From positions 18,319 to 82,318 of the forward strand of contig JADLFU010000183.1 of assembly GCA_020849655.1 (NCBI GenBank): a stretch of 64,000 nt of DNA, in the 5' to 3' direction. Shown here piece after piece: positions 2,647-53,471 of the stretch (its first letter is position 1; each line of letters starts with the position of its first letter). The DNA comes from Polyangiaceae bacterium. Lineage in GTDB: Bacteria; Myxococcota_A; Polyangia; Polyangiales; Polyangiaceae. A model generated the notes under the pieces. The model worked only from the letters and a program-made list of their open reading frames with translations. It searched no databases and was not told where the DNA came from. The position numbers were made by a program, and so were the translations under genes.

Positions 2647-3509
2647 GGCGGGTCTGCGGCCTGTTGCTCGCGCTCGCGCTCGCGGGCTGCGCAGGCGGGG
2701 AGCTCGACGAGCCGGCCGGCCCGCCGGGGCCCGTGCCCACCGATACGCGAACGCGGGGGTACGTGGTGACGACGCTCGGCTTCACTCGTCAGACGCAGCC
2801 GGGCGTGCGCGAGGGGTTCGATCTCGACGGGCGCGAGAGCGACGGCTCCGACGAGGCCACGTGCTTCAAGGCGGACGCCACCGATCCCGACGGACGGGTG
2901 GGCATCGACAACGAGCTGTCAGGGATCATCCCGACGGTGGACGGGGTGTTTCAAGGCGCCGTCGACGGGCTCATCCAGAGCTCCCTGCGCGATGGACAGC
3001 TGGTGCTGACGTACGAGCTGCGCGGCGTCGACTCCCTCGTCGACGATCCGGAGGTCGAGTTCGTGTTCCAGGTCGGTCAGAAGGCCCACCCCAGCCTCGG
3101 CACCGACGGCGTCATCGAGGCGTACCAGACCTTCGATCCCGATCCCGCGAGCCCGGCGAACAGCACGCGGAGGGGCCGCATCGAGGCGGGTGTGCTGTAC
3201 GTCGGTCCGCTGACGCTGGCCTTGCCGATCGCCATCTTCGACGTGTCGTTCGTCTTGCACCTGCAGGACGCGCAGTTTCGCGCCGCCGTCGCCGAGGACG
3301 GCAGCATCGACGGCCTGCTCGGCGGCGGCATCATCGTGCAGGAGCTCCTGGACGGCGTGAAGCAGGGTGCCGGCGTCGAGCAGAACCTCCCGATGATCAG
3401 GCTCGCGATGAACGCCTCGGCCGATCTGGCGCCGGACGCCGACGGCGTGTGCCGTCAGCTGTCCGCCGCGCTGTCGTTCCGCTCGAGGCCCGCCTTCGTC
3501 CGCTGGTAG
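2643..3509 (+). CDS. Hypothetical lipoprotein of the DUF1592/DUF1552 operon
   Basis: A 288-residue lipoprotein. The GTG start overlaps the DUF1552 stop by four bases. The N-terminus is a lipoprotein signal with lipobox LAGC (Cys about residue 17). The mature part has no domain I recognise; it alternates acidic and hydrophobic stretches suggestive of beta structure. It ends with TAG at 3507-3509, thirteen bases before the end of the convergent FadL-like gene if that gene stops at its TTA. Cotranscription with the two upstream genes suggests it belongs to the same envelope complex, which is an inference from spacing only. Confidence 0.8.
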   Translation: MRRVCGLLLALALAGCAGGELDEPAGPPGPVPTDTRTRGYVVTTLGFTRQTQPGVREGFDLDGRESDGSDEATCFKADATDPDGRVGIDNELSGIIPTVDGVFQGAVDGLIQSSLRDGQLVLTYELRGVDSLVDDPEVEFVFQVGQKAHPSLGTDGVIEAYQTFDPDPASPANSTRRGRIEAGVLYVGPLTLALPIAIFDVSFVLHLQDAQFRAAVAEDGSIDGLLGGGIIVQELLDGVKQGAGVEQNLPMIRLAMNASADLAPDADGVCRQLSAALSFRSRPAFVRW

Positions 3510-3522
3510 CGGGCGGCGCTCG

Positions 3523-5073
3523 TAAGAACCGGTAGACGCCGCCGATCGAGAACACGTCGATCGACTGCGTGAGCTTGCCGCCGTTGACGCCGTACGGAGA
3601 GCGGAACTCCTGATCGCTGTCGGTGACGGTGCGGCCCGCGACGAGGCCGCGGATCTGGCCGTTGCCGTGGTTGTCGACGCTGCCGACCATCACGTGCTGG
3701 TAGCCGGCCTGGATGTCGACGGGCCCCGCGCGGAACGTCCCGCCGACCGTGAGGCCGATGCGCTGGCTCGGCACGAAGTCCATGTGCAGGTACTCCTCGC
3801 GCACCGCCGAGGTCTGGAACCACGCGCCCGCCCGCACCGCGAGCTTCGCGGGGAGGATGACGTAGTCGCCGCCGAGCCGCGCGCCGTACGAGTCCTTCCA
3901 GCGGTGCGGGACGTCGGCGTTCACCGGGACGTCGGCCGTGATGCCCGGCCCGTTGACCACGGTGTTCGGCGCGAAGCGCAGCTCGAGATCCGTGAATTGG
4001 CTGTCGTGCGCCCACTCGAGGTCGAGCTCGACATCGAACACCTCCTCCTTCAGCGGATCCTTGCGGCCGGTGGGCGTGACGCCGTCGCGGCGCTTGTAGT
4101 AGCGCACGCCGACCCTGGCTTCCATCGGCTGCGGGACGTTCGCGTCCGTCTGGCCCGCCGGGGTCTTGTTGGCGACCTTGTCGCCCGAGGGGTTGGCGAC
4201 GTCCGGGTTGGAGCGCACGACCGTGATGTCGGCGGCGCCCTTCGCGCGGACGGAGTCTGACCAGTGGAACCAGGCGGCGAAGTCGAAGCGATCGTCGAGC
4301 GTGTACATGCTCGACAGCACGATCCCGGGGACGAAGTAGTCCTTCGCCGACACCGCGGCGGTCGCGTCCATGCCGGCCGAGTCACGGATGGTGCCGTCCG
4401 GGTTGCGCTTCTGGGTGTCGCTCGACTGGCCCATCGAGACGTTGCCGAACTTCAGCATCGCCACGCCCCAGATGAAGGACGCGCCGACGCGGAGGTTCGG
4501 CGCGATCTCGTAGCCGACCGCGAATTGCGGCCAGATGATCTTCGCGTCCTTCTCGGTGAGGACGTAGCGGGTGCCCGACGGCGCCTTGATCGACGCGCCG
4601 TCCGACACGCGGTACCCGCCCGCCGTCTCGGGGAACTTGGCCTTGCCGATCGCCGACGGCCCGAGCACCGCGACGCCGATGCCGAGCTTGTCCGTGACGC
4701 GGTACTGGAAGGCGATCTGCGGGTTGGGGAACAGCTCGGGATCGCTGCACACCTTGCCGTAGCGGTACGTCGTCGACTGCGAGCCGGAGCCCACGTAGGC
4801 CGGGCCGCCGCCGGGGCTCTGGCGCTGGAAACAGGTGTTCGCCTTGAAGAGGTTGACAGTGACGGACGCGCCGCTGCCGTTGCGCGAGAGCGCGGCGGGG
4901 TTGTAGAACGTCGCCAGGGGGTCGGACGCGCGGGCGAGCCACGCGGAGCCGCGGGCCATCTGTTCGGTGCCGTTGCCCGGCGTCTCGAAGCCGTTGGCGA
5001 GCGCGGCGGTGGTGAGGGTCAGGGTCGCGAGCGCGGCCGCGGACGAGGCTGTGAGGTGGTGGGTTCGGCGCAT
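3523..5073 (-). CDS. FadL/OmpP1/TodX-type outer membrane transporter, ends at TTA
   Basis: A FadL-family beta-barrel for long-chain fatty acid or hydrophobic solute uptake. After a signal peptide the mature N-terminus has GFETPGNGTEQMARG and ASDPLATFYNPAALSR, the family's plug motif. The barrel finishes with FSIGGVYRF, a normal outer-membrane C-terminal aromatic signal, at residue 516. The next codon is TTA (3525-3523). In the standard code the frame continues 41 more Arg-rich residues to TGA at 3397-3399, antisense to the convergent lipoprotein gene and burying the terminal Phe that BAM needs. I therefore end the gene at the TTA (see findings). Family call is firm; the end is an interpretation. 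Confidence 0.85.
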
Positions 5074-5083
5074 GGGTGGTGTC

Positions 5084-6736
5084 TCAGTCCTTCACTGGGC
5101 TGGCCTTCAGGGCGGCCTTGCCCTCTTTCACGTACACGGTGAACTTGACGCGCTTGCAGCCGTGGCGCGCGACCAGCGCGTCGCGGTTCTTGACGAGCGT
5201 CTGACGAAACTTGTCGAATGTGAGGTTGTCCGTGGGCTCGCCGTTGGAGCGCTTCAGCTTCACGAACTCGTCGAACACCTGGGGCCAGTCGGCGGTGTCG
5301 TCGTCGATGGCCTTGTGCTCACCGGTCGCGAGCGCCATCACCTCCTGCGGGATCTTGCTGACGACCGTGGAGTCGTCCTCCGGCTCCACGGGCGGCTGCG
5401 GGGCGCTCGGGCGCGCGGGCGGCTTCGGCGGGCCGGGCCTGCGCGGCGGCGGCTTTGGCGCCTCCGCCGGGGGCGCGGTGAGCGACATCATGTCGATCGA
5501 CGCGGAGGGGGCGTCCTGAGGGAAGGAGAAGGCGCTCATCGACGGCTGCTGCGGGAGCGGGCCGAGCACGCTCTCGAGGTCGGCGGCCTTCCTGGTGCCG
5601 CCGCCCTTCACCGCGATCTTCTCGACGCCGTCGTTGAGGTCGGCCGCGATCTTCCGGTAGACCGAGAAGAACTTGCTCGGCGCCATCGTGTCGACCTCGC
5701 CCTTCGCGAAGCGCGCGGCCTCGTTGCGGAACTTCATCAGCGGGCGCGTGTGCTCGATGAAGGAGAACAGGAGGCCGAGCAGCGCGACGGCCAGGCCGGC
5801 GCCGACGACGACCGGGTAGCTGACGGACTTCTTGTCGAGATCGTCGGCCTTCTGCACGAAGGCGAGCGGGCCGCCGAGCAGCGAGGCCGAGCGTCCGACC
5901 GCGTACCCGGCCCCGAGCGGCCACGACTCGCCGGGGATGCGCGCGTACATCACGCCGAGGTTCCCGTGGAGGATGCGCGCCTCGGTGCGGCCCTTCGTCT
6001 TGTAGCTCTCGTCGGCCGCGAGCCCGGAGAGGTCGCTCGTGATGGCGTCGAGCTGGCCCGCGTCGAAGCCCTCGGGGGCGGCGGCGGAGACGCGCGTGTT
6101 GGCGGCGTAGAAGGCGACGGCGGCGCCCGTGCGCTTCGACAGCTCGCGCGCGTAGGAGTCGTCGAAGATGCGCGCGCCGACGATGGCGCCGGCGGGCGCC
6201 TGGGAGGGATCGGTCTCGACCGGCCGCGCGACCACCTTGTAGATGCGCCCGTCGAGCACCCACGTGTCGTCGCGCACCCAGCCGTGCAGGGCGTCCGCGA
6301 CGAGCGGGTAGCCGCCGAGCTCGAAGTCGGCGTTGCCAGCGACCTGATCGAAGCCCACCTGCGCGACGACGCGGCCGTACTGATCGACCGCGAAGAGCGC
6401 GGTGAACTTCAGGTCGGCCGGCAGCTTGTCGTCGACGCTCCGGAGGAGCTTCTTCGCCTTGTCGTGCGCCTCCGCCGGGAGCTTGTCGGGCGACGCGGTG
6501 GCCTTCGAGAGCGCCGCGCCGAGCTCGGCGTCGAGCGCGAAGTTGATGAGCGCCGAGGAGCGCTTGCGCGCGTCGTCCTTCATGTACCAGGAGACGACCT
6601 GCGCGTCGCCGTTGAGCCCCTCGCTCATCACGCGCTTCGCGGCGCGGTCGTACATCGACGTGCCCACGTACAGCGCGAACACGAGGAACGCCGTCGCGAT
6701 GCCGAGGACGACGTACCAGAGCCGGGACGCGATCAC
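5084..6736 (-). CDS. MXAN_5187-like membrane protein
   Basis: A 550-residue protein. It has one N-terminal membrane helix (about residues 6-26), a periplasmic region of about 280 residues that looks like a single-Cache or CHASE-type sensor, a second helix near 305-327, a short HAMP-like helical stretch, a Pro-rich linker and a C-terminal domain of about 65 residues. That domain (FDEFVKLKRSNGEPT ... HGCKRVKFTVYVKEGKAALK) matches what I recall of the MXAN_5187 C-terminal domain, found mainly in myxobacteria. There is no kinase, cyclase or methyl-accepting domain, so output is unknown. GTG start overlaps the stop of the upstream cupredoxin-like gene by four bases; the longer frame upstream is antisense noise. 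Confidence 0.8.
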   Translation of the reverse strand: MIASRLWYVVLGIATAFLVFALYVGTSMYDRAAKRVMSEGLNGDAQVVSWYMKDDARKRSSALINFALDAELGAALSKATASPDKLPAEAHDKAKKLLRSVDDKLPADLKFTALFAVDQYGRVVAQVGFDQVAGNADFELGGYPLVADALHGWVRDDTWVLDGRIYKVVARPVETDPSQAPAGAIVGARIFDDSYARELSKRTGAAVAFYAANTRVSAAAPEGFDAGQLDAITSDLSGLAADESYKTKGRTEARILHGNLGVMYARIPGESWPLGAGYAVGRSASLLGGPLAFVQKADDLDKKSVSYPVVVGAGLAVALLGLLFSFIEHTRPLMKFRNEAARFAKGEVDTMAPSKFFSVYRKIAADLNDGVEKIAVKGGGTRKAADLESVLGPLPQQPSMSAFSFPQDAPSASIDMMSLTAPPAEAPKPPPRRPGPPKPPARPSAPQPPVEPEDDSTVVSKIPQEVMALATGEHKAIDDDTADWPQVFDEFVKLKRSNGEPTDNLTFDKFRQTLVKNRDALVARHGCKRVKFTVYVKEGKAALKASPVKD

Positions 6737-7476
6737 TTTCCCTTCTCCTTCGGCTCGTCCGCGATGACGAGCGCCTCGCGGAGATCGAGGTTGCCCGTCG
6801 CCCGCACGTTGACCTGCAGCGGCTTGCCGGACGGCTCGCCGTTGAAATAGGCGCGCAGCGTGTACTCGCCCTCCGGCAGGTTGCCGAACGTGAACGAGCC
6901 GTCGCGGCCCGGGTAGGCGATCCCGGCGACCTTCGGATCGACCACGATCCACGACCGGACGCTGGGGGCCAGCTCGTCGCGCAGCTCGTACTTGCCGGGC
7001 GCCGGGGCCTTCCACTGCCGCACGGCGCCGCTCTTCATCTCGGCGGCCTGGAAGGATCCCTGCCCGACAAGGTAAGGTTTGTGTGGAAAGGGATCGCGGT
7101 TCTGGAACTCGATCGAGGCGCCGGGCGGAACGACCAGCGTCACCGGGGAGGTGCGGCCGCCGGTGATCTTGAAGGCGATGGCGCCGGTCGACGGGGGGGC
7201 GTTGTTCGCGCCGATGGCGGCGATGCACACCTCCTTCGGCGCGTGCGCGAAGAGCGTGCGGAACTCGGCCTTCACGGTCGGGGACGGCTCACGCCACGTG
7301 AAGCGGTTCGCGCTCGCGTCCTTCGCCTCGCTCCAGACGGGGTTCAGCAGGCGCTGCGCGCCCGTCACCTTGCCCTTGACCGATCCGGGCAGCGCGGTCG
7401 CGGGCGCCAGCAAGAGCACCCCCGCCACCACCGCCGGAAGACCCCAAGCACGCCCTGCCGCTGGTCGAGTCCACAT
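6733..7476 (-). CDS. Exported cupredoxin-like/carboxypeptidase-regulatory-like protein
   Basis: A 247-residue exported protein. I start it at ATG 7476, which places a signal peptide (basic MWTRPAAGR, then a hydrophobic core ending ATALPG) at the N-terminus; the longer frame has no such signal. The middle resembles a plastocyanin/methylamine-utilisation fold, with IEFQNRDPFPHKPY the counterpart of the copper-site loop, though a full His-Cys-His-Met set is not obvious. The C-terminal part (GSFTFGNLPEGEYTLRAYF) is a carboxypeptidase-regulatory-like beta domain. It is coupled to the MXAN_5187-like gene through a GTGA overlap and probably works with it at the periplasmic face. Confidence 0.75.
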   Translation of the reverse strand: MWTRPAAGRAWGLPAVVAGVLLLAPATALPGSVKGKVTGAQRLLNPVWSEAKDASANRFTWREPSPTVKAEFRTLFAHAPKEVCIAAIGANNAPPSTGAIAFKITGGRTSPVTLVVPPGASIEFQNRDPFPHKPYLVGQGSFQAAEMKSGAVRQWKAPAPGKYELRDELAPSVRSWIVVDPKVAGIAYPGRDGSFTFGNLPEGEYTLRAYFNGEPSGKPLQVNVRATGNLDLREALVIADEPKEKGK

Positions 7477-7582
7477 GCGAGCGGTGGACGTTACACACTC
7501 GCGCGAAGGAGTGTAAACCGAGGCCGATCGAGGCGGAATCATCCGTCCGAGACGGAAGCCTCGTGGTAGTCAGGCGCCCGTG

Positions 7583-7975
7583 ATGCGCGGCGCTGCCCTC
7601 TCTCGCGGGCTCGGTGTGGCCCTCGCGGTCGGCGTGGTCGCGGGGGACGCTCGCGCGGACGACGAGTGGCTCGGGCGCGACAAGCGGCTGCACTTCGGCG
7701 CGTCCGCGGTCGTCGCCGCGGGTGGGTACGGCGCCGCGTCCGTCTGGACGACGTCGCGCGGAGCGCGGGCCCTCGCGGGCGGCGGGCTCGCGCTCGCCGT
7801 GGGCGCCGCGAAGGAGGGCTGGGACGCGGCGGGGCGCGGCGATCCGTCGTGGAGAGATCTCGCGTGGGACGCGGCGGGCGCGGCGGTCGGCGTCGCCGTG
7901 GCGTGGGCGATCGATCTCGCGCTCCGGCCTGCCGCGCGCGCCCACGCCGACGCCCCGCTGGTCGTGCGATGGTGA
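7583..7975 (+). CDS. YfiM/DUF2279-like exported protein
   Basis: A 130-residue protein. An N-terminal signal sequence runs to about ARADD. The motif DKRLHFGASAVV near residue 33 and the later AAKEGWDAAGRGDPSWRDL are the two conserved blocks of the DUF2279 (YfiM) family, small envelope proteins of unknown role. A GTG lies one codon before the ATG I chose. The stop overlaps the ATG of the downstream XPB-type helicase by seven bases, so the genes are probably cotranscribed although no functional link is known. Confidence 0.7.
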   Translation: MRGAALSRGLGVALAVGVVAGDARADDEWLGRDKRLHFGASAVVAAGGYGAASVWTTSRGARALAGGGLALAVGAAKEGWDAAGRGDPSWRDLAWDAAGAAVGVAVAWAIDLALRPAARAHADAPLVVRW

Positions 7976-10540: not shown

Positions 10541-10549
10541 GCCCGGCGC

Positions 10550-11398: not shown

Positions 11399-12288
11399 AG
11401 CGGCTGGAGGCGCCGGCGTCGCTCGCAGAGATGCAGCGCTGGTTCTCCCTCGTGCTGCGGGCGCCGCTCGACCCCTCGTCGCGGTCGTTCGTCGCCTCGC
11501 CCGAGGCGTGGCCGCCCGAGGCAGAGCGCCTGACGACGCCCGGCGCCCACGGGACACGGCGCGAGAGACTCGCCGTCTACAACCGGCAGTACTGGTTCCG
11601 GTTGTTCACCGCGTTCGGGCGCGAGTACCCGCTGCTCGCGCGCCTCGTCGGGCATTTTCGGCTCAACCAGCTCACGCAGCGCTTCGTGCTCTCGCGCTCG
11701 CTCTCGGGGGTCGATCTCGGGCGCGCCGCCGACGGCTTCGACGCCTTCGTCGCCGAGGAGCTGTCGCGGGGCGAGCTCGGGCTCATCCCCTCGTTGCCCG
11801 CCGAGGTGAACGACGCGCTCCGGGACGCCGCCGCGATCGACGCCGCGTATCGCGCGCTCTGGGCCGCGCCGAAGGCGCCCACCCTCAGGCCCGATCCGGC
11901 CGACCTCGAGGCGCTCACGGCCGCGCCGCTCGTGCCCTCGGGGGCCGCGGTGATCGTCGAGGAGGGCTGGGCGCTGCTCGAGCTGCGCCGCGCGCTCCCG
12001 GGCGTGGAGGGGGAGGGCGCGGTCGCGCTGCCCGAGCGACACGACGCGCGCCGAGCGGTCGCGCTCGTGCGGCGTGACGGCGTGATCGTCGAGGCGCCGC
12101 TCGAGCCGCTCCAGGCGCTGCTCTACCGGGAGCTGGCGAGGCGGGCGCTCCCCGCCGCGCTCGACGTGGTCGCGGCCGCGTCGACGTCGCCCTCGGCCGA
12201 GCTCGCCCGCGACGTCGAGCGCTGGGTCGCGTGGAGCGTCCGGGCCGGCCTGTGGGCTGCGCCGGCCCCGCCCGCTCCTCTGCGCTAA
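11395..12288 (+). CDS. DUF2063 partner protein (MbnC/BufC-like)
   Basis: A 297-residue protein with the DUF2063 'putative DNA-binding' domain, which in MNIO systems acts as the substrate-recruiting partner of the DUF692 enzyme. The N-terminal half has the family signature (ERLAVYNRQYWFRLFTAFGREYP, split here as RLAVYNRQYWFRL and TAFGREYPLL). The GTG start overlaps the DUF692 stop (GTGA). The stop is TAA at 12286-12288, one of only two TAA stops in the window, and that same triplet read on the other strand is the TTA that ends the convergent lipoprotein. The substrate peptide is unknown. Confidence 0.88.
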   Translation: MKRLEAPASLAEMQRWFSLVLRAPLDPSSRSFVASPEAWPPEAERLTTPGAHGTRRERLAVYNRQYWFRLFTAFGREYPLLARLVGHFRLNQLTQRFVLSRSLSGVDLGRAADGFDAFVAEELSRGELGLIPSLPAEVNDALRDAAAIDAAYRALWAAPKAPTLRPDPADLEALTAAPLVPSGAAVIVEEGWALLELRRALPGVEGEGAVALPERHDARRAVALVRRDGVIVEAPLEPLQALLYRELARRALPAALDVVAAASTSPSAELARDVERWVAWSVRAGLWAAPAPPAPLR

Positions 12289-13554: not shown

Positions 13555-13602
13555 AGGGGGGCTCCTTGACCGGCGAAAGCGGCGGGACGATAGCCAAACA
13601 GC

Positions 13603-14649: not shown

Positions 14650-14682
14650 GCGCCGCGCGGGATCTGGGGTATCCGTGGCGGC

Positions 14683-16416
14683 ATGTCCGACGAGCTCCTC
14701 GCGCGCGCGCGCGCCTTTCGTGACGGCGATCCCGACCCCGCCACCCAGCGCGAGCTGGGCGCGCTGATCGACGCGGGCGACCTCGCCGAGCTGCGCGAGC
14801 GGATGGCCGGGCCCCTCGAGTTCGGCACGGCGGGGCTGCGAGGCGTGCTCGGGGCGGGCGAGAGCCGGATGAACCGCGCCGTCGTCCGCCGCACGACCGC
14901 CGGGCTCGCCGCGTACCTCGCCCGCCAGGTGCCCGACGCGCGCGAGCGGGGTGTCGTCGTCGGCCACGACGCGCGCCATCAGAGCCGCGCCTTCGCCGAG
15001 GACTGCGCCGCCGTGCTCGCGGCGGCCGGCTTCCGCGTGTGGTTGTTCGCCGACGTGGGGCCGACGCCGCTCGTCGCGTTCGGCGTGCTCCACCACCGCG
15101 CAGCGTGCGGGGTGATGGTCACCGCGAGCCACAACCCGCCCGAGTACAACGGCTACAAGGTCTACTGGGAGGATGGCGCGCAGATCATCCCGCCCCACGA
15201 CGCGGGCATCTCCGCCGCCATCGCCGCCCAGCCGCCGGCGCGCCTCGTCCCGCTCGCGGACCTGTGCGCCGCGCAGGCCGACGGGCGCGTGGCCACCCTG
15301 TCGCCCGAGGTGACAGAGGCGTATTTTCAGCGGATCGCGGCGCTCGGCGCGGACGCGCGCGGGCGCGACGGCGTGCGCATCGTGGTCACGGCGATGCACG
15401 GCACGGGCGCGCCCTGGACGCGGGAGGCGCTCCGCCGCGCCGGGTTCTCGAGCGTCTCGCCCGTGCCGGAGCAGGAGCTGCCGGATCCTGACTTTCCTAC
15501 CGTCAAGTTTCCCAACCCCGAGGAGCCTGGCGCGATGGACCTCGCGCTCGCGCAGGCGGCGCGGGAGGGCGCGAACCTCGTGCTCGCCAACGATCCCGAC
15601 GCCGACCGCCTCGCCGTCGCCATCCCCGCGCGGGCCGGGTGGAGGCTGCTCACGGGCAACGAGATCGGCGCGCTGCTCGGCGAGTACCTGCTGCGCGCGC
15701 GGCCGGAGGGCGGCGCGTCCCGCCTCGTGCTCACGACGATCGTGAGCTCGCCGCTGCTCGTCCGCGTCGCCGAGGCGCTCGGCGTGCGCTACGCCGAGAC
15801 GCTGACGGGGCTGAAGTGGATCTGCGCGGAGGCTCGCCGGCAGGAGGCGGAGGGGGCGCGGTTCGTGTTCGGGTACGAGGAGGCGCTCGGCTACTGCGTC
15901 GGCAACGTGCGCGACAAGGACGGCGTCAGCGCCGCGGCCGTCTTCGCCGAGCTCGCGGCCGTCGCGGGCGCGGAGGGGCGCACGGTCGAGGACGAGCTCG
16001 GGCGCATCGCGCAGGCGTACGGCCTCTACGTCAGCGGCCAGCACAGCGTCGTGCACAAGGGCGCCGACGGCCTCGCGGCCATCCGGGCGACGATGGCGAG
16101 GCTGCGCGCGTCGGCGCGCGGCTCGATCGGCGGGCTCGCCGTCGTGGGCGTGCGCGACGTCGAGGCCGGGACGTGCCGGCGGGCCGACGGCGCCGTCTCC
16201 GCGCTCTCGCTGCCGAGGAGCGACGTCGTGATGTTCGACCTCGAGGGCGGCTCGCGCGTCGTCGCGAGGCCGAGCGGCACCGAGCCGAAGATCAAGTTCT
16301 ACTTCGACGTGTGTGAGCGCTGGGCGCCGGGCGAGCCCTTCGACGTCGCGCGCGCGCGGGCGGAGGCGAGGCGCGGGCGCGTCGTCGCGGAGTTCCTCGA
16401 GCTCGCGGGCGCATGA
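14683..16416 (+). CDS. Phosphoglucomutase/phosphomannomutase family (alpha-D-phosphohexomutase)
   Basis: A 577-residue mutase that moves phosphate between C1 and C6 (or C5) of hexose or pentose phosphates. The length and N-terminus (FGTAGLRGVLGAGESRMN) fit the PgcA/PGM2-like subgroup. The phosphoserine loop is TASHNPPEYNGYK near residue 147, the metal loop DPDADR near 305, the sugar loop GYEEALGYC near 396, and the phosphate-binding loop GTEPKIKFY near 529. The stop overlaps the ATG of aroE (ATGA), so the two are likely cotranscribed. Whether it prefers glucose-1-phosphate or pentose-1-phosphate cannot be decided from sequence. Confidence 0.9.
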   Translation: MSDELLARARAFRDGDPDPATQRELGALIDAGDLAELRERMAGPLEFGTAGLRGVLGAGESRMNRAVVRRTTAGLAAYLARQVPDARERGVVVGHDARHQSRAFAEDCAAVLAAAGFRVWLFADVGPTPLVAFGVLHHRAACGVMVTASHNPPEYNGYKVYWEDGAQIIPPHDAGISAAIAAQPPARLVPLADLCAAQADGRVATLSPEVTEAYFQRIAALGADARGRDGVRIVVTAMHGTGAPWTREALRRAGFSSVSPVPEQELPDPDFPTVKFPNPEEPGAMDLALAQAAREGANLVLANDPDADRLAVAIPARAGWRLLTGNEIGALLGEYLLRARPEGGASRLVLTTIVSSPLLVRVAEALGVRYAETLTGLKWICAEARRQEAEGARFVFGYEEALGYCVGNVRDKDGVSAAAVFAELAAVAGAEGRTVEDELGRIAQAYGLYVSGQHSVVHKGADGLAAIRATMARLRASARGSIGGLAVVGVRDVEAGTCRRADGAVSALSLPRSDVVMFDLEGGSRVVARPSGTEPKIKFYFDVCERWAPGEPFDVARARAEARRGRVVAEFLELAGA

Positions 16417-17216
16417 GCGGCGTCACGGTCTGCGGATCGCTGTCGAGGTTCCCCGTCTCGCTCGGCCGCGCGATGCACGAGGCGGGGTACCGCGCGCTCG
16501 GGCTCGACTGGATGTACGCGCCGTTCGCGTGCGTCGACGTGCGGGGCGCGCTCTCTGGCATGCGCGCGCTCGGCATCCGCGGGCTCGGCGTGTCGATGCC
16601 GTTCAAGGTGGAGGTCCTCCCGCACCTCGACGCCGTGACGCCGCAGGCCTCGCGCATCGGCGCCGTGAACACGCTCGTCAACGACGGCGGCCGCGTCACC
16701 GGGCACAACACCGACGCCGCCGGCGCGGTCGAGGCGCTCCGCGAGGTCGTCTCGCTCGAGGGGCGACGGGTGCTCGTGCTCGGCGCGGGCGGCGCCGCGC
16801 ACGCCGTCGTCTTCGGGCTGGTCGACGCGGGCGCGCGCGTGACCGTCGCCAACCGCACGCCCGAGCGGGGGCGCGCGCTCGCGGCGCGGTCGGGCGCGGC
16901 GTACGCGGCGTGGGACGCGGCGCTCGCCGGCGACCACGAGGTGCTGGTCCACGCGACGTCGCAGGGCATGGCCGGCGTCGGCGACGAGTCGCCCGTCCGG
17001 GCGGCGAGCCTCACCGCGTCGACGGTGGTGATGGACATCGTCTACAAGCCGATCGAGACGGCGCTCGCCCGCGCGGCGCGCGAGCGTGGCGCGACGGTGA
17101 TCACCGGGGAGCGCATGCTGCTCCACCAGGCGATGGGTCAGTTCTCGCTCTACACCGGGCTCGCGGCGCCGCGCGAGGCGATGGAGTCGGCGCTCCTCGC
17201 CGCGCTCTGTGCGTTA
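16413..17216 (+). CDS. aroE: Shikimate dehydrogenase, ends at TTA shared with convergent folD TAA
   Basis: A 267-residue NADP-dependent shikimate dehydrogenase (3-dehydroshikimate to shikimate, aromatic amino acid pathway). Visible are SMPFKVEV with the catalytic Lys, NTLVNDGG, GHNTDAAGAVEAL, the Rossmann loop GAGGAAHAVV, ANRTPERGRAL, and the terminal GERMLLHQAMGQF. The family ends about 15-20 residues later, and here the codon is TTA at 17214-17216, exactly opposite the folD TAA stop. In the standard code the frame runs on for a further 329 residues to 18203, antisense across all of folD. I end it at the TTA, giving a normal length. ATG overlaps the mutase stop. Confidence 0.88.
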
Positions 17217-18080
17217 CGCGCGCCGCTTCGCCGCCTCGCGCGCGCGCGCCGCGGTGACCGTGTTCGCGAGCAGGCACGCGATGGTCATCGGGCCGACGCC
17301 GCCCGGCACCGGCGTCAGGTGCCCCGCGCGCTCCGCCGCCTCGGCGAACGCGACGTCGCCGACCAGCTTGCCGTCCGCGCCGCGGTTGATCCCGACGTCG
17401 ATGACGACCGCGCCCGGCTTGATCCAGTCGCCGCGCACCAGGTTGGCGCGGCCCACCGCCGCGACGAGCACGTCGGCCTCGCGGCAGACGGCGGGCAGAT
17501 CGCGCGTCCTCGAGTGCGCGATGGTGACGGTCGCGTGCTTCGCGAGCAGGAGCTGCGCGATCGGCTTGCCGACGATGTTGCTGCGACCGACCACGACGGC
17601 GCGCGCCCCCGCGAGCTCGACGCCCGACTCGGCGATGAGGCGCATGCAGCCGAGCGGCGTGCACGGGACCAGCGCGGGGTGCCCCGTCGCGAGGCGCCCG
17701 GCGTTCAGCGCGTGGAACCCGTCGACGTCCTTGTCGGGATCGATCGCGCGGAGGACCTCGGCCTCGCGCACCTGCTTCGGCAGCGGGAGTTGCACGAGGA
17801 TGCCGTCGACGGCGTCGTCGCGGTTGAGCCGCTCGACCAGCGCGAGCACCTCGGCCTCGGGCGTCTCCGCGGGCAGGCGGATCAGCGTGCCCGCGATCCC
17901 GCACTCCTTCGCGCTCCGCTCCTTGTTGCGGGTGTAGACGACGCTCGCCGGATCCTCTCCGACGAGCACCACCGTCAAGCCGGGCGCCCGGCCGTGCGCC
18001 GAGGTGAACCCGGCCACGTCCGCGCGGACCTCCGCGCGCACCTTCTCTGCGATCGCCTTGCCGTCGAGGATGTTCGCCAT
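17214..18080 (-). CDS. folD: Methylenetetrahydrofolate dehydrogenase/cyclohydrolase
   Basis: A 288-residue bifunctional folate enzyme that interconverts methylene-, methenyl- and formyl-tetrahydrofolate in the cytosol. Motifs are the [14 protein letters not shown] segment with the catalytic Tyr/Lys, [32 protein letters not shown] and [11 protein letters not shown] near the C-terminus. ATG 18080 starts at [14 protein letters not shown]. It ends with TAA at 17216-17214, the triplet that on the other strand is the aroE TTA. It lies 70 bases downstream of the TrmN6-like gene and may be the last gene of the long minus-strand operon. Confidence 0.96.
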
Positions 18081-18150
18081 GCGCCCGGTGTACACCAGCG
18101 CCCGTGCGGCGCGAGCGCCCGCTGCTCGGCCGGGAGGCGCGCCCGCGGGA

Positions 18151-28835: not shown

Positions 28836-28878
28836 GCCGCCCTGGCGAAAAATGCAACTAACTTAACACACGCGCCGC

Positions 28879-32515: not shown

Positions 32516-32554
32516 CGCTCGCCGCGCCGCGCTGGCTCCGGCACAATCGGCGAC

Positions 32555-33908: not shown

Positions 33909-33911
33909 CGC

Positions 33912-36623: not shown

Positions 36624-36684
36624 GGCAGAGGGCAGGGTGGAGGGGCGCGGCGAGCGCGTGGCGGCGCCGCGCCTCCTCGGTGGA

Positions 36685-37101
36685 TAACAGCGCCTCGAGC
36701 GCCTTCTGGAAGCGACCGGCGTGGCTCTTCTCGGCCTTCGCCAGTGTCTCGAACCACTCGGCGATGTCGGCGAAGCCCTCCTCGCGCGCGGCCTTCGCCA
36801 TGCCCGGGTACATCGTCTCGTACTCGTGCGTCTCGCCGGCGACCGCGGACCTCAGGTTGGCCTCGGTGTCGCCGATCGGCAGGTTCGTCGCCGGATCGCC
36901 GACCTCCTTCAGGTAGTCGAGGTGGCCGTGCGCGTGGCCCGTCTCGCCGTCGGCCGTCTCCTTGAAGAGCGCGGCGGCGCTGGTGAGCCCCTCGATGTCG
37001 GCCCGCTTTGCGAAGTAGAGGTAGCGGCGGTTCGCCTGGGACTCGCCCGCGAACGCGTCCTTGAGGTTCTGGTGGGTCTTGGTTCCTTCGAGCTTCGGCA
37101 T
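36685..37101 (-). CDS. Rubrerythrin-family diiron protein, ends at TTA
   Basis: A 138-residue short rubrerythrin with only the diiron ferritin-like domain and no rubredoxin domain. Ligand motifs are [16 protein letters not shown] near residue 16, [11 protein letters not shown] near 48, [12 protein letters not shown] near 81 and [18 protein letters not shown] at the end. Homologues I recall end within one or two residues of this KAL(E/D)xL. The next codon is TTA (36687-36685). In the standard code the frame adds 37 residues of Arg/Pro/His-rich sequence and runs 50 bases into the Fe-S gene. I end it at the TTA. It reduces peroxide, probably with the downstream Fe-S protein. Confidence 0.88.
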
Positions 37102-37148
37102 GGTGACGGTGCTCCGCTGGGTGGGGTGGATGGGGGAGGAGAGCTTGC

Positions 37149-37571
37149 TCAGCGCGCGCGGCACCTGGCGCACGCGCCGCGGTAGATCGTCTCGACGGCG
37201 CGCACGACGAACCCCGCGGGCGGCGCCGCCGTCGCCCGCGCGGCGCGCCCCGGGAGATCGATCAGCGCGCCGCAGGAGTCACAGACGGCGTGGCCGTGGG
37301 GGGCGACGTTGGGATCGAAGCGCGCGGGCCCGGGCGACAGCGCGCGCACAGCGCACAGGCCCGCGGCGGCGAGGGTGTCGAGCGTGGTGTACACGGTCGC
37401 GAACGACATCGTCGGCAGGCGCCGCCGCAGCCGCTCGAAGATCTCCTGCGCCGTCGGGTGGGTCGGGTCGTCGGCGAACGCCTCGACGATCGCGAGCCGC
37501 TGGGGCGTCAGCTTCAGCCCCGCGCCGCGGAGGCCCTCGATCATCTGCTCCGCGGCGGCGCTCCGGTGCAC
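37149..37571 (-). CDS. Fur-family regulator, probably PerR-like
   Basis: A 140-residue Fur-family repressor. The winged helix is [18 protein letters not shown] ... [29 protein letters not shown] (split motifs), and the dimer domain has [16 protein letters not shown] with CxxC and a terminal CARC, forming the structural zinc site. Its place directly upstream of rubrerythrin, with a 47-base gap, argues for a peroxide sensor rather than an iron or zinc one. GTG 37571 lies next to an 18-base inverted repeat, suggesting autoregulation. Confidence 0.9.
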
Positions 37572-37575
37572 GGTG

Positions 37576-37593: not shown

Positions 37594-37671
37594 TTTCCTA
37601 CTTGCAAGCCCCTCTCGCCCGCGTGTGTCTGGTGGCCGCGCGCCTCGGGCTTTGTTAGAGGGCCGCCTCGC

Positions 37672-38897: not shown

Positions 38898-38935
38898 GCA
38901 CGGATTTCAGGGTCTCGGGCGTCTCCCGACGACCG

Positions 38936-39589: not shown

Positions 39590-39633
39590 CGTGTCCCTCT
39601 ACCATCACGGGGCGCACCCGGTATGCTCTTCGT

Positions 39634-40731: not shown

Positions 40732-40744
40732 GCACCGACGCGCG

Positions 40745-42256: not shown

Positions 42257-42339
42257 CGGCCCCGACACTCCGACACAGAATCGAGGGCGTGTCCTCGGTG
42301 TTCGTGCGGCGCGCGGCGCGCGCGGCGCCTGCCTCGATC

Positions 42340-43017: not shown

Positions 43018-43027
43018 CTACCTAGAC

Positions 43028-45713: not shown

Positions 45714-45716
45714 GGT

Positions 45717-48907: not shown

Positions 48908-49008
48908 TCGTCGGCGGCGTTATCGCACATTCGCCGCTGACCCGACAGGCCGATCGGGCGCGCCTCGGGCGATCGCGCGGCGCGTCGCCGTCCGGCCTGA
49001 GAGAGCGC

Positions 49009-49848
49009 TCAGTAGCGGCCCTTGCGCCCCGAGCGGTGCTCGGCGAGCGCGGCGTGATCCTGCTCCTTCTTCAGCAGCACGCCGGCGAAGGGCAGGGGCA
49101 GCTCGCGCTTCAGGCGCTCGTGCCCGACGCCGCTCCGCGAGAGCACCGCGAGCCAGTCGACCAGCTCGCTCGTCGACGGCTTCTTGCGCACGCGCGGCAC
49201 CTGCCGCAGCTCGTAGAACGCGACGATCGCCTGATCGACCAGCGCGTCGTCGAGCTTCGGGTGGTGGACGCGCACGATGGCCTTCATCATCTCCGGCGTC
49301 GGAAAATCGATGAAGTGGAACACGCAGCGGCGGAGGAACGCGTCGGGCAGCTCCTTCTCGTTGTTGCTCGTGATGATGACGATCGGGCGCTCCCTGGCGA
49401 CGATCTCGTCGCCGGTCTCGCCGACCACGAACCGCATCCGGTCGAGCTCGTGCAGCAGATCGTTCGGGAACTCGAGGTCGGCCTTGTCGACCTCGTCGAT
49501 GAGCAGGACGAGGCGCCTGTCGGACGAGAACGCGCGCCCGAGCGGGCCGAGCTTGATGTACCGACGGATGTCCTTCACGTCGCCGTCCCCGAAGCGGGCC
49601 TCGTAGAGCCGCTGCACGGTGTCGTAGACGTAGAGGCCATCCTGGGCGCGCGTGGTCGACTTCACCGGCCAGTGGATGAGCTCGGCGGAGAACGTCGACG
49701 CGATCGCCTCCGCGAGCAGCGTCTTGCCGGTGCCGGGCTCGCCCTTCACGAGCAGCGGCCGCTCGAGCGCGAGCGCGCAGTTGACGGCGGCCTCGAGCGA
49801 GTCGTTCGTGATGTAGGTGACGGTGCCGCGGAAGCGCTCGAACGTCAT
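49009..49848 (-). CDS. MoxR-family AAA+ ATPase
   Basis: A 279-residue AAA+ ATPase of the MoxR branch. Walker A GEPGTGKTLLAEAIA near residue 36, Walker B LVLLIDEVDKAD near 114, sensor ITSNNEKELPDAFLRRC near 158 (Asn/Arg finger) are clear. MoxR proteins act as chaperones in the assembly of metal-containing or secreted complexes, often with a VWA-domain partner, and none is adjacent here. ATG 49848. The 101 bases between it and the kinase hold no gene. Confidence 0.93.
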   Translation of the reverse strand: MTFERFRGTVTYITNDSLEAAVNCALALERPLLVKGEPGTGKTLLAEAIASTFSAELIHWPVKSTTRAQDGLYVYDTVQRLYEARFGDGDVKDIRRYIKLGPLGRAFSSDRRLVLLIDEVDKADLEFPNDLLHELDRMRFVVGETGDEIVARERPIVIITSNNEKELPDAFLRRCVFHFIDFPTPEMMKAIVRVHHPKLDDALVDQAIVAFYELRQVPRVRKKPSTSELVDWLAVLSRSGVGHERLKRELPLPFAGVLLKKEQDHAALAEHRSGRKGRY

Positions 49849-49957
49849 GCGGGGCGCGCTCGTACCGGAGCAGCCCGAGCGTGTCTACGCGGGAGCGCGC
49901 TTGCCGGGCGCGCGACGCGTCCGCTAGTGTCGAGGGCGCTCGCGCGGCGAGCTCGCA

Positions 49958-51277
49958 TTGGACAGCTCCTCCGTCCCACCCGCCCTGCTGCTCGGCGCCG
50001 CCGCGGCGTCCGCGTTCGGCTCGGTCGTGGCGGCGGGCGACGCGGCGCTCTCGGCGCTCAGCCCGGCGCGGCTCTCGGCGCTCGCGGACCAGTCGTCCAC
50101 GGCCTCGCGCGACGCGCTGACGAGGTTCGCGCGGGCGCCGTCGAAGACGCTCGGGCGCTGGCTCGTCCTGCGCACGATCGCGACGGCGCTCGTCGCGGTG
50201 CTGTTCGACGAGGTCCCGCTCCTCGCGGTGACGGGCGCGCGGCCGCTGCTCGCCGTCGGCGCCGCGCTCGTGACGTGCGGCACGCTCTACGAGCTCGCGT
50301 CGGCGCTGGCGCGCGCGCGCGCCGTGACGGTGGCGCCCTTGATGCTGCGGGTGCTGCGGCCGATCGAGCTCGTCGTCGCGCCGGTCGCCGATCCGCTCTC
50401 GGCGATGGGCCGGTGGGTGAGCGAGCGGCTCGCGCCGGCCGATCCGTCGGCCGAGGGCGCGCGCTCCGAGGCTCGGCTCGCCGAGTCGGAGGTGGAGCAC
50501 CTCGTCGAGGACGCCGAGAAGGCGGGGCAGATCGCCGCGGAGCCCGCGGAGCTCATCCGCAACGTGCTCGACTTCAAGGATCGGGTCGCGCGGGACGTGA
50601 TGGTGCCGCGCATCAAGGTCACGCACATCTCGGTGGAGCAGCCCATCGACGAGACCGCGCGGCAGGTCGCCGAGGAGGGCCACTCGCGGTACCCGGTCTA
50701 CGCGGGCAAGACGGACAACGTCGTCGGCGTGCTGCACGCGAAGGATCTCTTCCGCCGGCTCGCGACCGACCGGCTCGGCGACGCGACCGTGCGCGCCGTG
50801 ATGCGCGCGCCGGTGCAGTTCATCCCGGAGACCCAGGCCGTCTCGGCGGTGCTGCGCGACATGCGCGCGCGCCGTGACCACCTCGCGATCGTCATCGACG
50901 AGTACGGGGGCGTCTCGGGCATCGTGACCCTGGAGGACATCCTCGAGGAGATCGTCGGCGACATCCGCGACGAGCACGATCTCGACGAGCCGCTCGTGGA
51001 GGATCTCGGGGACGGCCGCTACCTCGCGGACGCGTCGGTGAGCCTCGGCGATCTCTCGAGCTACCTCGGGCAGTCGCTCCACGCGGACGGTGACTTCGGC
51101 TCGCTCGGCGGCCTCCTCACCAGCCAGCTCGGGCGCGTGCCGGCGGTCGGCGAGGCGGTGCACGCGTCCGGTGTGGAGCTCGTCGTCCGCGAGGCCGACG
51201 AGAAGCGCGTCATCAAGGTCGAGATCGTGACGCCCCCGCCGCGGTCCATCCGCGTGCCGAGGCCCGCGTCCGGCTGA
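49958..51277 (+). CDS. HlyC/CorC-family protein with CBS pair
   Basis: A 439-residue transporter-associated protein of the CNNM/CorC family. Hydrophobic segments occupy residues 1-140, with only partial similarity to the DUF21 membrane domain. A CBS pair follows (RDVMVPRIKVTHISVEQPI shown as RDVMVPRIKVTHIS, AVMRAPVQFIPETQAVS, IVIDEYGGVSGIVTLEDILE) and a CorC_HlyC C-terminal domain (GRYLADASVSLGDLS). Likely divalent metal or magnesium-related function. TTG start; no better start is in frame. Zero-base convergence with the next minus gene (TGA at 51275, TAG from 51278). Confidence 0.85.
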   Translation: MDSSSVPPALLLGAAAASAFGSVVAAGDAALSALSPARLSALADQSSTASRDALTRFARAPSKTLGRWLVLRTIATALVAVLFDEVPLLAVTGARPLLAVGAALVTCGTLYELASALARARAVTVAPLMLRVLRPIELVVAPVADPLSAMGRWVSERLAPADPSAEGARSEARLAESEVEHLVEDAEKAGQIAAEPAELIRNVLDFKDRVARDVMVPRIKVTHISVEQPIDETARQVAEEGHSRYPVYAGKTDNVVGVLHAKDLFRRLATDRLGDATVRAVMRAPVQFIPETQAVSAVLRDMRARRDHLAIVIDEYGGVSGIVTLEDILEEIVGDIRDEHDLDEPLVEDLGDGRYLADASVSLGDLSSYLGQSLHADGDFGSLGGLLTSQLGRVPAVGEAVHASGVELVVREADEKRVIKVEIVTPPPRSIRVPRPASG

Positions 51278-51694
51278 CTAGTCCACGCGGTCGAGGCCGC
51301 CGGGCTCGCCGTCCGGGCCGTCCGACGAGACGTCGTACGCGCGCTCGGGGCGCGCCGCGGGGCACGTGAGCCGCAGCGGCCGCCGCCACGCGTCCTCGGG
51401 CACGCGCGGCAGGTAGCCCGCCGCGACGAGCTCGCCCCAGCCCGCCTTCGGGCACGCGAGCGCGTGGTCGGCGCGGTACGCGTCGACGGCGCGGCGCGCG
51501 AGCAGCAGCGAGGCGCGGGTCGTCCGCAGGTTGGCTTTGTGATTTTCACGCCGCCGGAGCACGATCGCGAGCAGCGCGATCGCGAGCACGCCGAGCGCGA
51601 GCCGCACGCGACCCATCCCCAGCCGGCGGAGCGCTGTGCCCTGCCTCTCCCACGGCAGGAACACCGTGCGAGCGGAGCCGCGTCGCCTCGCCAC
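51278..51694 (-). CDS. GspG-like pseudopilin-domain protein
   Basis: A 138-residue protein. One hydrophobic helix (VRLALGVLAIALLAIVLRRR, residues 30-49) precedes a C-terminal domain with VDAYRADHALACPKAGWGEL, YLPRVPEDAWRRPLRLTCPA and a final YDVSSDGPDGEPGG that is typical of type II secretion GspG pseudopilins (calcium-binding DGxxGG-like ending). The N-terminal G/FTLIE prepilin cleavage motif is absent, so it may be a minor, non-assembled relative. GTG start follows the small membrane gene directly. Ends with TAG. Confidence 0.7.
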   Translation of the reverse strand: MARRRGSARTVFLPWERQGTALRRLGMGRVRLALGVLAIALLAIVLRRRENHKANLRTTRASLLLARRAVDAYRADHALACPKAGWGELVAAGYLPRVPEDAWRRPLRLTCPAARPERAYDVSSDGPDGEPGGLDRVD

Positions 51695-51940
51695 TCAGGG
51701 CCCTCGGCTCGCGCTCGCCGACGGCGCGGGCGGGGCCGCGGAGGCCGACGCGCTGGCGCTGACGCGGGGCCGAAACGGCACGTCGCCGAGCCCCCGGCCG
51801 CGCGGCGTCGCCTCGCCGAAGACGACCTCACGGCGCCCCCCGCGCGCCACCATCATCGCGCTCGCGAGCAGCATCAGCAGCATCAGCGGCAGGAACCCCG
51901 GGGACTTCCAGGGCGGTGGCTTCTGAGGGTCGAACCCCAT
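51695..51940 (-). CDS. Hypothetical small membrane protein
   Basis: An 81-residue protein with a single hydrophobic helix (FLPLMLLMLLASAMMVA, residues 17-33) and a Ser/Ala-rich C-terminal half (VSASASASAAPPAPSASAS). Family not recognised. ATG 51940 has GGAG directly before it. Its stop abuts the start of the pseudopilin-like gene. It is free of the upstream kinase gene only if that gene ends at its TTA; otherwise the two overlap by 113 bases. Confidence 0.55.
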   Translation of the reverse strand: MGFDPQKPPPWKSPGFLPLMLLMLLASAMMVARGGRREVVFGEATPRGRGLGDVPFRPRVSASASASAAPPAPSASASRGP

Positions 51941-51986
51941 CTCCGGCCCCCATACCTCGCGCGGCGGCGCTCGCCAAAGCGCGGGG

Positions 51987-53471
51987 TAAGTAGACTGGAT
52001 CCTTCCAGCCGGGCGCGAGCGTCGGCGGGGGAGGGGCCGCGGCCGCCCTCGCCTTCAGCTTCACCTTCTCGGGCGTGGCGCCGATCTTCAGCGTGGCCGT
52101 CTGCGGGTGAAAGCCCGCCTTCGTGAGGTAGAGTTTCACCTCGGCGCCGGCCTTCGCCCGCTCACCCTTGACCGTCAGCGAGCAGGGCGTGCCGGTGCAG
52201 ACCTCGTCTCCGTCGGCGCCGTCGAGCCGCACGCTCGCGCCGCTCGGCTCGCTCACGATGCGCAGCGTCGCCTCCTTCGGGGGCTCGGGCTTCGGGGGCG
52301 GCGCCACGGACGCCGCGGGCTCGGGCTTCGGCGGCTCCGCGCTCGGCGCGGCGGCGGGCGCGGGAGGGGGCGCGGGAGGAGGGGTCTTCTGCGAGTAGAG
52401 CGCGACCGCCGCGGCCGCCGCGACCGCCGCGAGCCCCGCGCCGATGAGGAGCCCCTTGCCCTTCTTCGGCGGCGCCGCGCTCTCGGCGGCGAGGAGCGAG
52501 GCGCGCGACGCGGGATCGCTGTCCATCCCGCGGGACACGAACACGTGGGCGCCGGAGCCCGCGGTCGTGCCGTCGGTGCCCGTCATGGTCATGGTCAGCG
52601 CGTTCGGCGAGGTGGCCTTCAGCGCCGCCAACAGCTCCTCCATCGAGAGGAAGCGCTCGTCCGGGTTCTTCGCGAGGCACCTCGCGACGAGCGCCTCGGT
52701 GAGCTCGTCGACGTCGGCGAGCGGGTTCACCTCCGCGAGCCTGGGGGGAGGATCGTTGACGTGCGCCATCAGCGTCTGGACGTTGCCGCCCTTGTCGAAG
52801 GGCACCTTGCCGGTGAGCATCTCGAACAGCACGACGCCGAGCGCGTACACGTCCGCCCGCCCGTCGGTCGCGTCGCCGCGGATCAGCTCCGGGGCCATGT
52901 ACTTCGGGGAGCCCATGAAGGTGCCCGCCTGCGTGAGGTCCTCGTCGGCCTCCTTCACCAGGCCGAAGTCGATCACCTTCACGAAGTCGTCCTCGTCGCC
53001 GTGCTTGACGAGGTAGACGTTCGCGGGCGTCACGTCGCGGTGCACGACGCCGAGGCCGTGCGCCTCGCGCAGGCTGCGCGCGATCTGCCGGGTGATCGAC
53101 AGCGCGCGCTCGCGAGGCAGCGGACCGTCGTCGCGGATGGCGCGCAGGAGCGTGCGCCCCTCGAGCAGCTCCATCGCGAGGTAGAGCATGCCGTCCTCGG
53201 CGGACTTCCCGTAGTCGAACACCGTGACCGTGTTCGGGTGGGTGAGCTTCGAGACCACGCTCGCCTCGAGGAAGAAGCGCTTCGAGAACTCGACCACGTC
53301 GCCGCCCTCCGGCAGACGCAGCACCTTGATCGCGCACGCCCGGCCGAGCGACGCCTGCTCGGCGCGGTAGACCGCGCCCATCCCGCCGCGGGCGATGCGC
53401 TCCAGGATCTTGAACTTGCCGCCCAGCTCGCGCCCGACGAGCGGATCGAGGTTCGTGTCGCTGTTTGCCAT
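51987..53471 (-). CDS. Ser/Thr protein kinase with PEGA domain, ends at TTA
   Basis: A 494-residue Hanks-type kinase: GRELGGKFKILERIARGGMG with the Gly loop, ACAIKVLR, VVHRDVTPANVYLV (catalytic loop; Lys-Pro replaced by Thr-Pro), VIDFGLVK (DFG), GSPKYMAPELI. One helix follows (LLIGAGLAAVAAAAAVAL near 350), then a Pro/Ala linker and a PEGA domain (LRIVSEPSGASVRLDGADG, CTGTPCSLTVKG). The protein ends PGWKDPVY and then TTA (51989-51987), a place where myxobacterial kinases commonly stop. In the standard code 52 more residues follow to 51828, overlapping the next gene. I end it at TTA. Confidence 0.88.

What the first reader, a model, noticed from the sequence alone, without database searches (positions are those of the whole stretch)
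3397..53471. UUA appears to act as a stop codon: five genes end at in-frame TTA, and no in-frame TTA was found inside any recognised gene
Seen: five minus- or plus-strand genes (FadL-like, lipoprotein, AroE, rubrerythrin, Ser/Thr kinase) have an in-frame TTA at the residue where their family normally ends, and no TAA/TAG/TGA there. In the standard code all five run on into low-complexity or antisense sequence (41, 335, 329, 37 and 52 residues). By eye, every other sense-strand TTA in a gene is out of frame (7073, 9327, 39951, 57263, 58921, 62592), so TTA is not absent from the sequence, only from frame. Known: Leu-UUA is very rare in GC-rich genomes, and UUA is a stop in some mitochondrial codes. 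Inferred: UUA is read as a termination codon, or is unassigned after loss of tRNA-Leu(UAA) and triggers ribosome rescue. To my knowledge this would be a new bacterial code change.
Basis: partly seen in the sequence, partly recalled or inferred. Interest (0 to 1): 0.97.

Follow-up and report, generated by a model that had tools for sequence, protein, structure and literature searches.

The report
Bacteria that stop at UUA
In a lineage of myxobacterial genomes the leucine codon UUA stands at the ends of genes, almost never inside them, the tRNA that would read it was not found and release factor 2 carries changes in its codon-reading part, so UUA is likely read there as a stop signal, which would be a new genetic code for bacteria.

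Summary
All five genes end at an in-frame TTA where the coding signal stops; three end where their family or homologues end. In 1.29 Mb of this genome (20%), 30 of 32 TTAs after confident coding end it, and the other two look like gene ends on inspection. TGA does so in 548 of 575 cases, CTA, ATA and GTA pooled in 25 of 175. A same-genus genome and two of a second genus (one at 62% GC) behave alike; in five other family genomes 20 of 30 TTAs continue and 5 end. The four genomes share: no tRNA-Leu(UAA) found (94 of 104 other family genomes give a hit); an RF2 with Asp143Gly and Leu201Phe (E. coli numbering), in one 100/100 clade; and a tmRNA tag ending ...AA-TTA, where 21 of 21 relatives read have TAA, TAG or TGA. 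UUA is almost certainly a fourth stop codon, probably read by the changed RF2. Rescue of an unassigned codon is unlikely, since the rescue RNA itself ends on UUA. UUA stops with RF2 changes are known in organelles; I found none reported for bacteria. One contrary TTA lies inside metH of the sister genome. No experiment exists.

The parts
3523..5073 (-). FadL/OMPP1-type outer membrane protein gene ending at TTA 3523-3525; last residue before TTA is Phe
   Evidence: PF03349; the best 19 homologues aligned all end 0-2 residues from the TTA column, the 78% identical P0122 exactly there
3397..3522 (-). run-on tail of 41 codons that the standard code would add to the FadL-like protein
   Evidence: coding posterior 0.000 in this frame; present in the database's own 558-aa version P0121, in none of the 19 homologues aligned
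   Evidence: upstream posterior 1.0, downstream 0.004; no Pfam or NCBIfam match, so its family end could not be checked
16413..17216 (+). aroE, shikimate dehydrogenase, ending at TTA 17214-17216
   Evidence: TIGR00507 matched to position 269 of 270, 3 residues before TTA
17214..18077 (-). folD, convergent with aroE; its TAA stop is the same three base pairs as aroE's TTA
   Evidence: FolD models NF010785 and others; TAA at 17214-17216; opposite-strand coding posterior 0.979
36685..37173 (-). rubrerythrin gene ending at TTA 36685-36687
   Evidence: PF02915 matched to 136 of 137, 5 residues before TTA
51987..54377 (-). Ser/Thr protein kinase gene ending at TTA 51987-51989
   Evidence: kinase models matched well before the end, so the family end does not test it; upstream posterior 0.935, downstream 0.000

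Best explanation
In this genome and three relatives UUA stands at gene ends beside the three standard stops, and it is likely read as a fourth stop codon by a changed release factor RF2. Seen in the sequences: TTA ends coding frames, the UAA-anticodon leucine tRNA was not found, the tmRNA tag frame ends at TTA, and RF2 carries clade-wide substitutions, all in its codon-reading part, while the RF1 motif looked at is normal. Inferred: UUA became very rare, probably under GC pressure, its tRNA was lost, and RF2 changes (Asp143Gly and Leu201Phe, E. coli numbering; Phe207Tyr in most) relaxed the purine demand at the second codon position so that U as well as A and G is accepted before the third-position A. 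UUA then spread as a real stop, also into essential genes. UGA stays the main stop and still sits at the programmed frameshift site of the RF2 gene.
For: Up/down coding test: TTA ends in 30 of 32 (G000) and 6 of 7 (G001), 9 of 9 (G026) and 4 of 5 (G078). Controls, ends/seen: G006 1/7, G008 1/14, G004 2/4, G005 1/3, G009 0/2, G012 none seen. Profile ends meet the TTA: NuoK 101/101, isocitrate lyase 428/430, malate synthase 510/511, NadA 295/295, AroE 269/270, FadI, RpoH, pirin; of 33 frames scanned 27 had a match and none has a matched domain across TTA. FadL: 19 of 19 homologues aligned end within 2 residues. tRNA-Leu(UAA) not found in the 4 genomes; pattern hit in 94 of 104 other family genomes. 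RF2: Asp at site 143 in 93 of 93 rows outside the genus and in 82 of the 120 homologues listed, Gly in 37, one unread by the regex; at site 201 Phe in 40 of 40 Gly proteins and Leu in 43 of 43 Asp proteins; one clade, 100/100. tmRNA tag ends ...AA-TTA in 4 of 4...AA plus a standard stop in 21 of 21 relatives read.
Against: No protein, ribosome profiling or release data exist. One TTA lies inside metH of G001; three relatives have TTC there and a second odd change lies two codons away, so a private mutation or sequence error is likely but not shown. One G078 TTA is ambiguous (downstream posterior 0.36; an ATG follows one codon on). The RF2 serine changed in organelles with UUA stops is unchanged here, Phe207Tyr also occurs in 4 RF2 rows outside the clade, and any link between RF2 residues and UUA is correlation. 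RF1 of G026 and G078 was not looked at. The genomes are incomplete (81-97%), so tRNA absence rests on four drafts.
Confidence: 0.9

Rival explanations
1. UUA is unassigned after loss of its tRNA; ribosomes stall there and are freed by tmRNA or ArfB, which in effect ends the protein.
For: No tRNA-Leu(UAA) found; tmRNA present in all four genomes and an ArfB-like frame in G000.
Against: The tmRNA tag frame itself ends at TTA in 4 of 4 genomes, so rescue would run into the same stall; tagging would mark NuoK, S21, RpoH, FadI and others for breakdown (recalled function of the tag); RF2 is changed in its codon-reading part. ArfB-type release without a codon is not excluded.
Confidence: 0.06
2. UUA is a stop, but another factor than RF2 reads it (RF1, or a factor or rRNA change not looked at), and the RF2 changes are unrelated.
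For: The RF2 link is correlation; the serine changed in organelles is intact.
Against: RF1 of G000 and G001 has its PAT motif; the three PF00472 hits in G000 are RF1, RF2 and an ArfB-like frame; RF2 has substitutions at sites otherwise invariant in the rows compared.
Confidence: 0.09
3. Standard code: TTA is merely rare because of GC bias, and the ends at TTA are chance, sequence errors or read-through genes.
For: TTA is very rare in this genome; the genome is a draft.
Against: CTA, ATA and GTA are as AT-rich and coding goes on after 131 of 175; G078 has only 61.7% GC and 85 CTA sightings yet no clear internal TTA among 5; family ends coincide with TTA; tmRNA and RF2 agree.
Confidence: 0.01
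4. TTA is a regulatory leucine codon as in Streptomyces, where the rare tRNA gates expression.
For: High GC and rare TTA are shared (comparison recalled).
Against: The gating tRNA was not found and TTA lies at gene ends.
Confidence: 0.005

Closest known systems
UUA stop codon in mitochondria of Labyrinthulea (mtRF2a) and plastids of peDinoflagellates (pRF2), PMC12574857 (passages read)
   Same: UUA turned from leucine to stop; cognate tRNA lacking (reported for the plastids); RF2-type factor changed in its codon-reading region
   Different: there the conserved RF2 serine (Ser204) is replaced by Ala, Gly or Cys; here the SPF serine stays and Asp143, Leu201 and mostly Phe207 change; there organelle genomes, here draft bacterial genomes of 5 to 8 Mb
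UUA/UUG stop codons in mitochondria of Marsupiomonadales and Pseudoscourfieldia (mtRF1a), PMC12574857 and PMC6821328 (passages)
   Same: leucine-to-stop change with a modified release factor
   Different: RF1-type factor and UUG included; here UUG is still sense (91 of 759 end) and the RF1 motif looked at is normal
Arginine codon reassignments in bacteria (Codetta screen, PMC8629427, passages)
   Same: a bacterial sense codon changes meaning; codon usage reduced first (their proposal)
   Different: sense-to-sense; here sense-to-stop; Codetta cannot detect sense-to-stop (PMC9825746, passage)
bldA-type TTA regulation of Streptomyces (recalled)
   Same: GC-rich genome with rare TTA
   Different: there TTA is leucine and the tRNA exists

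Membership tests
UUA leucine-to-stop reassignment | UUA at the ends of genes where homologues end | tested here: met
   33 frames scanned, 27 with a profile match, none with a domain across TTA; 19 of 19 FadL homologues aligned
UUA leucine-to-stop reassignment | UUA absent from inside genes | tested here: met
   0 of 32 in G000 after inspection, 0 of 9 in G026; exceptions: 1 of 7 in G001 (metH), 1 of 5 ambiguous in G078. Only parts of each genome were sampled
UUA leucine-to-stop reassignment | no tRNA with anticodon UAA | tested here: met
   Leu tRNAs found: CAA, CAG, GAG, UAG in all four genomes; genomes 81-97% complete
UUA leucine-to-stop reassignment | peptide release at UUA shown by experiment | not testable with these tools
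   needs biochemistry or proteomics
Organellar RF2-type mechanism (Ser204 substitution) | serine of the RF2 SPF motif replaced | tested here: not met
   Ser kept in 97 of 97 RF2 rows, the genus included, and in G026 and G078
Organellar RF2-type mechanism (Ser204 substitution) | RF2 codon-reading region otherwise altered | tested here: met
   5 diagnostic columns (one of them defines the groups), all at residues 122-200 of 363
Unassigned codon with tmRNA rescue | rescue RNA can end on a codon that is read | tested here: not met
   tag frame meets TTA right after ...AA in 4 of 4 genomes
bldA-type regulation | tRNA-Leu(UAA) present | tested here: not met

The most novel reading that the evidence does not exclude
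A lineage of Polyangiaceae has a fourth stop codon, UUA: the first sense-to-stop change known outside organelles. It arose once with a re-tuned RF2 (Asp143Gly, Leu201Phe, mostly Phe207Tyr) that accepts U, A or G at the second position, and it spread into essential genes and tmRNA. Because UUA and UAA are reverse complements, one base-paired triplet now stops two convergent genes at once (aroE and folD in the window; 8 of 32 TTA stops sampled in this genome).
Probability: 0.88. Interest if true: 0.97.

Novelty: new variant of a known kind. Interest (0 to 1): 0.96.

Why it matters
The bacterial code changes that I know of give a codon a new amino acid; here a sense codon appears to have become a stop in genomes of 5 to 8 Mb. 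A main screening program cannot see such changes (PMC9825746, passage), so others may be hidden in GC-rich clades. The clade offers natural RF2 variants for testing how release factors choose the second base, and a living case of codon loss followed by capture. A practical point: standard-code gene calls in this clade run past the likely real ends, as the database copy P0121 does.

Tried and rejected
GC bias alone: rejected by the AT-rich sense codons after which coding continues and by the 61.7% GC genome G078. A first scoring scheme was too strict and transferred badly to other genomes; it was replaced by a model trained per genome. A looser threshold (20 codons, 0.6) gave 39 TTAs after coding in G000, two of them coding-like on both sides: the rubrerythrin end and the NUDIX junction. 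Tandem backup stops: TTA within 10 codons after standard stops is not clearly enriched in frame (4, against 5 in the two other frames together). A special +4 base: C after 19 of 30 TTA, much as after TAG (53 of 85). Phe207Tyr as sole cause: it is missing in 3 of 40 clade proteins and present in 4 rows outside. G004, where the tRNA pattern also failed, has TTA inside coding in 2 of 4 cases and the Asp/SPF form of RF2: a missed pattern alone is no evidence. In the family search 8 of 108 genomes gave no RF2 match and three hits were short fragments (G059, G115 at 72%, G032 at 67%); I did not read these. First regex for RF2 motifs recovered 65 of 80 loci; redone by tblastn (97 rows, some of them the same gene fetched twice). 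Shared two-way stops were not seen in G026 (0 of 9) or G078 (0 of 5) and once in 7 in G001. Structure prediction of RF2 was not run, since it would not show codon choice.
Full report
Where the window lies. It is part of contig C183 of genome G000, a draft of 6.56 Mb in 307 contigs, 96.9% complete; the window has 73.8% G+C. The only other genome of its genus that the searches gave, G001, is by my inference the public MAG 'Myxococcota bacterium KLAP97': the contig with its RF2 gene has the same number and length, 41,079 bases. RF2 relatives carry names such as Polyangiaceae bacterium, Labilithrix and Sorangium.

The observation. No TTA was found inside coding sequence in the window. AroE ends 3 residues before its TTA by TIGR00507 (269 of 270 positions), rubrerythrin 5 residues before by PF02915. 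For the FadL-like protein I aligned the best 19 of the 119 listed database homologues: all end 0 to 2 residues from the TTA, and the 78% identical P0122 ends exactly there. The database's own copy of the window protein (P0121, 558 aa) runs on for 42 residues that none of the 19 has. The large gene at 12286 has no profile match and the kinase models end far upstream, so for these two only the coding signal speaks.

Genome-wide test. I trained a codon model per genome and asked, for every codon, whether coding signal in the same frame goes on for the next 30 codons after 30 codons of confident coding. In 1,289,001 bases of G000 (20% of it) TTA ends the signal in 30 of 32 cases, like TGA (548 of 575), TAG (85 of 93) and TAA (11 of 12). 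The 60 other sense codons together do so in 23,594 of 296,491 (8%), and the highest single one, CTT, in 48 of 144. CTA, ATA and GTA pooled: 25 of 175; Fisher p = 9e-19. The two 'continuing' TTAs look like gene ends too: one is followed 9 bases on by a GTG in the same frame and then a NUDIX domain, while the part before it has no Pfam match; the other ends a FadI thiolase and has a standard stop 13 codons on. So I count none of the 32 inside a protein.

Families. All 33 TTA-ended frames of G000 (32 plus the kinase) were scanned, 30 against Pfam and three against NCBIfam (seven of the 30 against NCBIfam as well); 27 had a match and no matched domain crosses the TTA (among matches listed; long lists are capped at 25). 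Profiles that end within 5 residues of it include NuoK (101/101), isocitrate lyase (428/430), malate synthase A (510/511), NadA (295/295), FadI (434/436), RpoH (269/270), pirin C (103/103) and FadD11 (583/585), some of these below the curated cut-off of the model. Others (RluA, YebC, ribosomal protein S21, CtaA, pyrimidine phosphorylase) end 6 to 22 residues before it.

Relatives. The sister genome G001 (357 kb sampled): 6 of 7 TTAs end coding (Fisher p = 8e-4 against CTA, ATA and GTA). The seventh lies inside metH, at a Phe that is TTC in G000, G026 and G078, two codons after another private change (TGC for TTC). A search of 108 family genomes with the G000 RF2 (100 with a match) found two more genomes with a close full-length RF2 (76% identity), G026 and G078 of another genus. 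There TTA ends coding in 9 of 9 and 4 of 5 cases; the fifth is ambiguous, and an ATG follows it one codon on. G078 has 61.7% GC in the sample and 85 CTA sightings, so GC bias does not explain it. In other family members, ends/continues/seen: G004 2/2/4, G006 1/4/7, G008 1/10/14, G005 1/2/3, G009 0/2/2, G012 none seen.

tRNA. ARAGORN on all 40 tRNA hits of G000 gives leucine tRNAs CAA, CAG, GAG and UAG, none with UAA; some other tRNAs (such as Asn and Ile) are missing too, so absence in one draft is weak. G001, all 34 hits read: the same four. G026 and G078, all hits of Leu/Ser length read but not every short hit: the same four anticodons, no UAA. A pattern for tRNA-Leu(UAA) hits 94 of 108 family genomes and none of the four; of the other 104, ten have no hit. 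Of 30 loci held from exact pattern hits, ARAGORN a tRNA-Leu(UAA).

RF2. I compared 40 proteins with Gly and 43 with Asp at the site of E. coli Asp143. Besides this column, which defines the groups, four columns differ at 90% or more in both: Leu201Phe (40 of 40 against 0 of 43), Phe207Tyr (37 of 40 against 1 of 43), position 211 Gly (40 of 40 against 1 of 43; E. coli also has Gly) and position 218 Val (40 of 40 against 0 of 43). All five lie at residues 122-200 of 363, in the codon-reading part (numbering from the alignment and 205-SPF-207 in PMC6742477, passage). Asp143 is kept in all 93 rows outside the genus. Of 120 homologues listed out of 8,000 scored, 37 have Gly, 82 Asp, and one was not read by the regex. 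A tree of 67 proteins puts all 40 Gly proteins on one side of a branch with 100/100 support; that stem is long. From memory, the equivalent Asp of Thermus RF2 lies near the second codon base; I could not check this (paper not held). PMC6821328 (passage) states that RF2's Ser206 allows A or G at the second position. RF1 of G000 and G001 keeps the PAT motif. The RF2 gene keeps the frameshift site AGGGGG-TAT-CTT-TGA-C in the four genomes, which fits continued UGA reading.

tmRNA. Rescue RNA is present in all four. Its tag frame reads ANDNAVPFALAA-TTA in G000 and G001 and ANDNVEAEEI(L/F)AVAA-TTA in G026 and G078. In the 21 relatives read (of 32 with a match over the cut-off, the four genomes not counted) it reads ANDN...AA followed by TAA (16), TGA (3) or TAG (2). 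This sign does not depend on protein families, and it counts against tmRNA rescue as the normal fate of UUA.

Two-way stops. TTA on one strand is TAA on the other. At 8 of 32 TTA stops of G000 the opposite strand is coding up to the same triplet, and 6 of 12 TAA stops face a TTA-ended frame in this way. In the window aroE and folD share 17214-17216. For TGA and TAG stops, in-register coding on the other strand is seen in 26 of 548 and 8 of 85. It was seen once in G001 (1 of 7) and not in G026 or G078.

Literature. UUA stops are known from organelles with altered RF2 or RF1 (PMC12574857, passages). [quoted passage not shown] The listings of my searches for a bacterial case (each capped at 15 to 20 titles, empty) show none; subscription papers and preprints are mostly not held, so this is no proof.

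Verdict. Not shown: release at UUA, protein C-termini, and which RF2 residue matters.

Noticed in passing
L388:596-4619 (G026:C300, about 14.1-18.1 kb): A dense array of about 32 tRNA genes on a contig of the second-genus genome, with one tRNA whose anticodon UUA would read UAA; possibly a phage or other mobile element. No leucine tRNA with anticodon UAA is in it or in the Leu arrays on C72, C465 and C14.
   Followed up: partly
17214-17216: One base-paired triplet stops two convergent genes, aroE (TTA) and folD (TAA).
   Followed up: yes
L093:17598-17600: TTA inside metH of G001 (KLAP97) at a conserved Phe, with a Phe-to-Cys change two codons before; private mutation, decay or sequence error.
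   Followed up: partly
28864-28866: TTA as fifth codon behind a TGA stop on the minus strand, perhaps a backup stop, perhaps chance; no clear general enrichment.
   Followed up: partly
L060 and L276 (G009, G004): RF2 of these two relatives shares an unusual stretch around SPF (MSPFNADHTRQ) and lies apart from the UUA clade.
   Followed up: no
G026 sample, 196 kb: Of 84 stop-like triplets after confident coding none is TAA and two are TAG, fewer than TTA (9); the rest are TGA.
   Followed up: no
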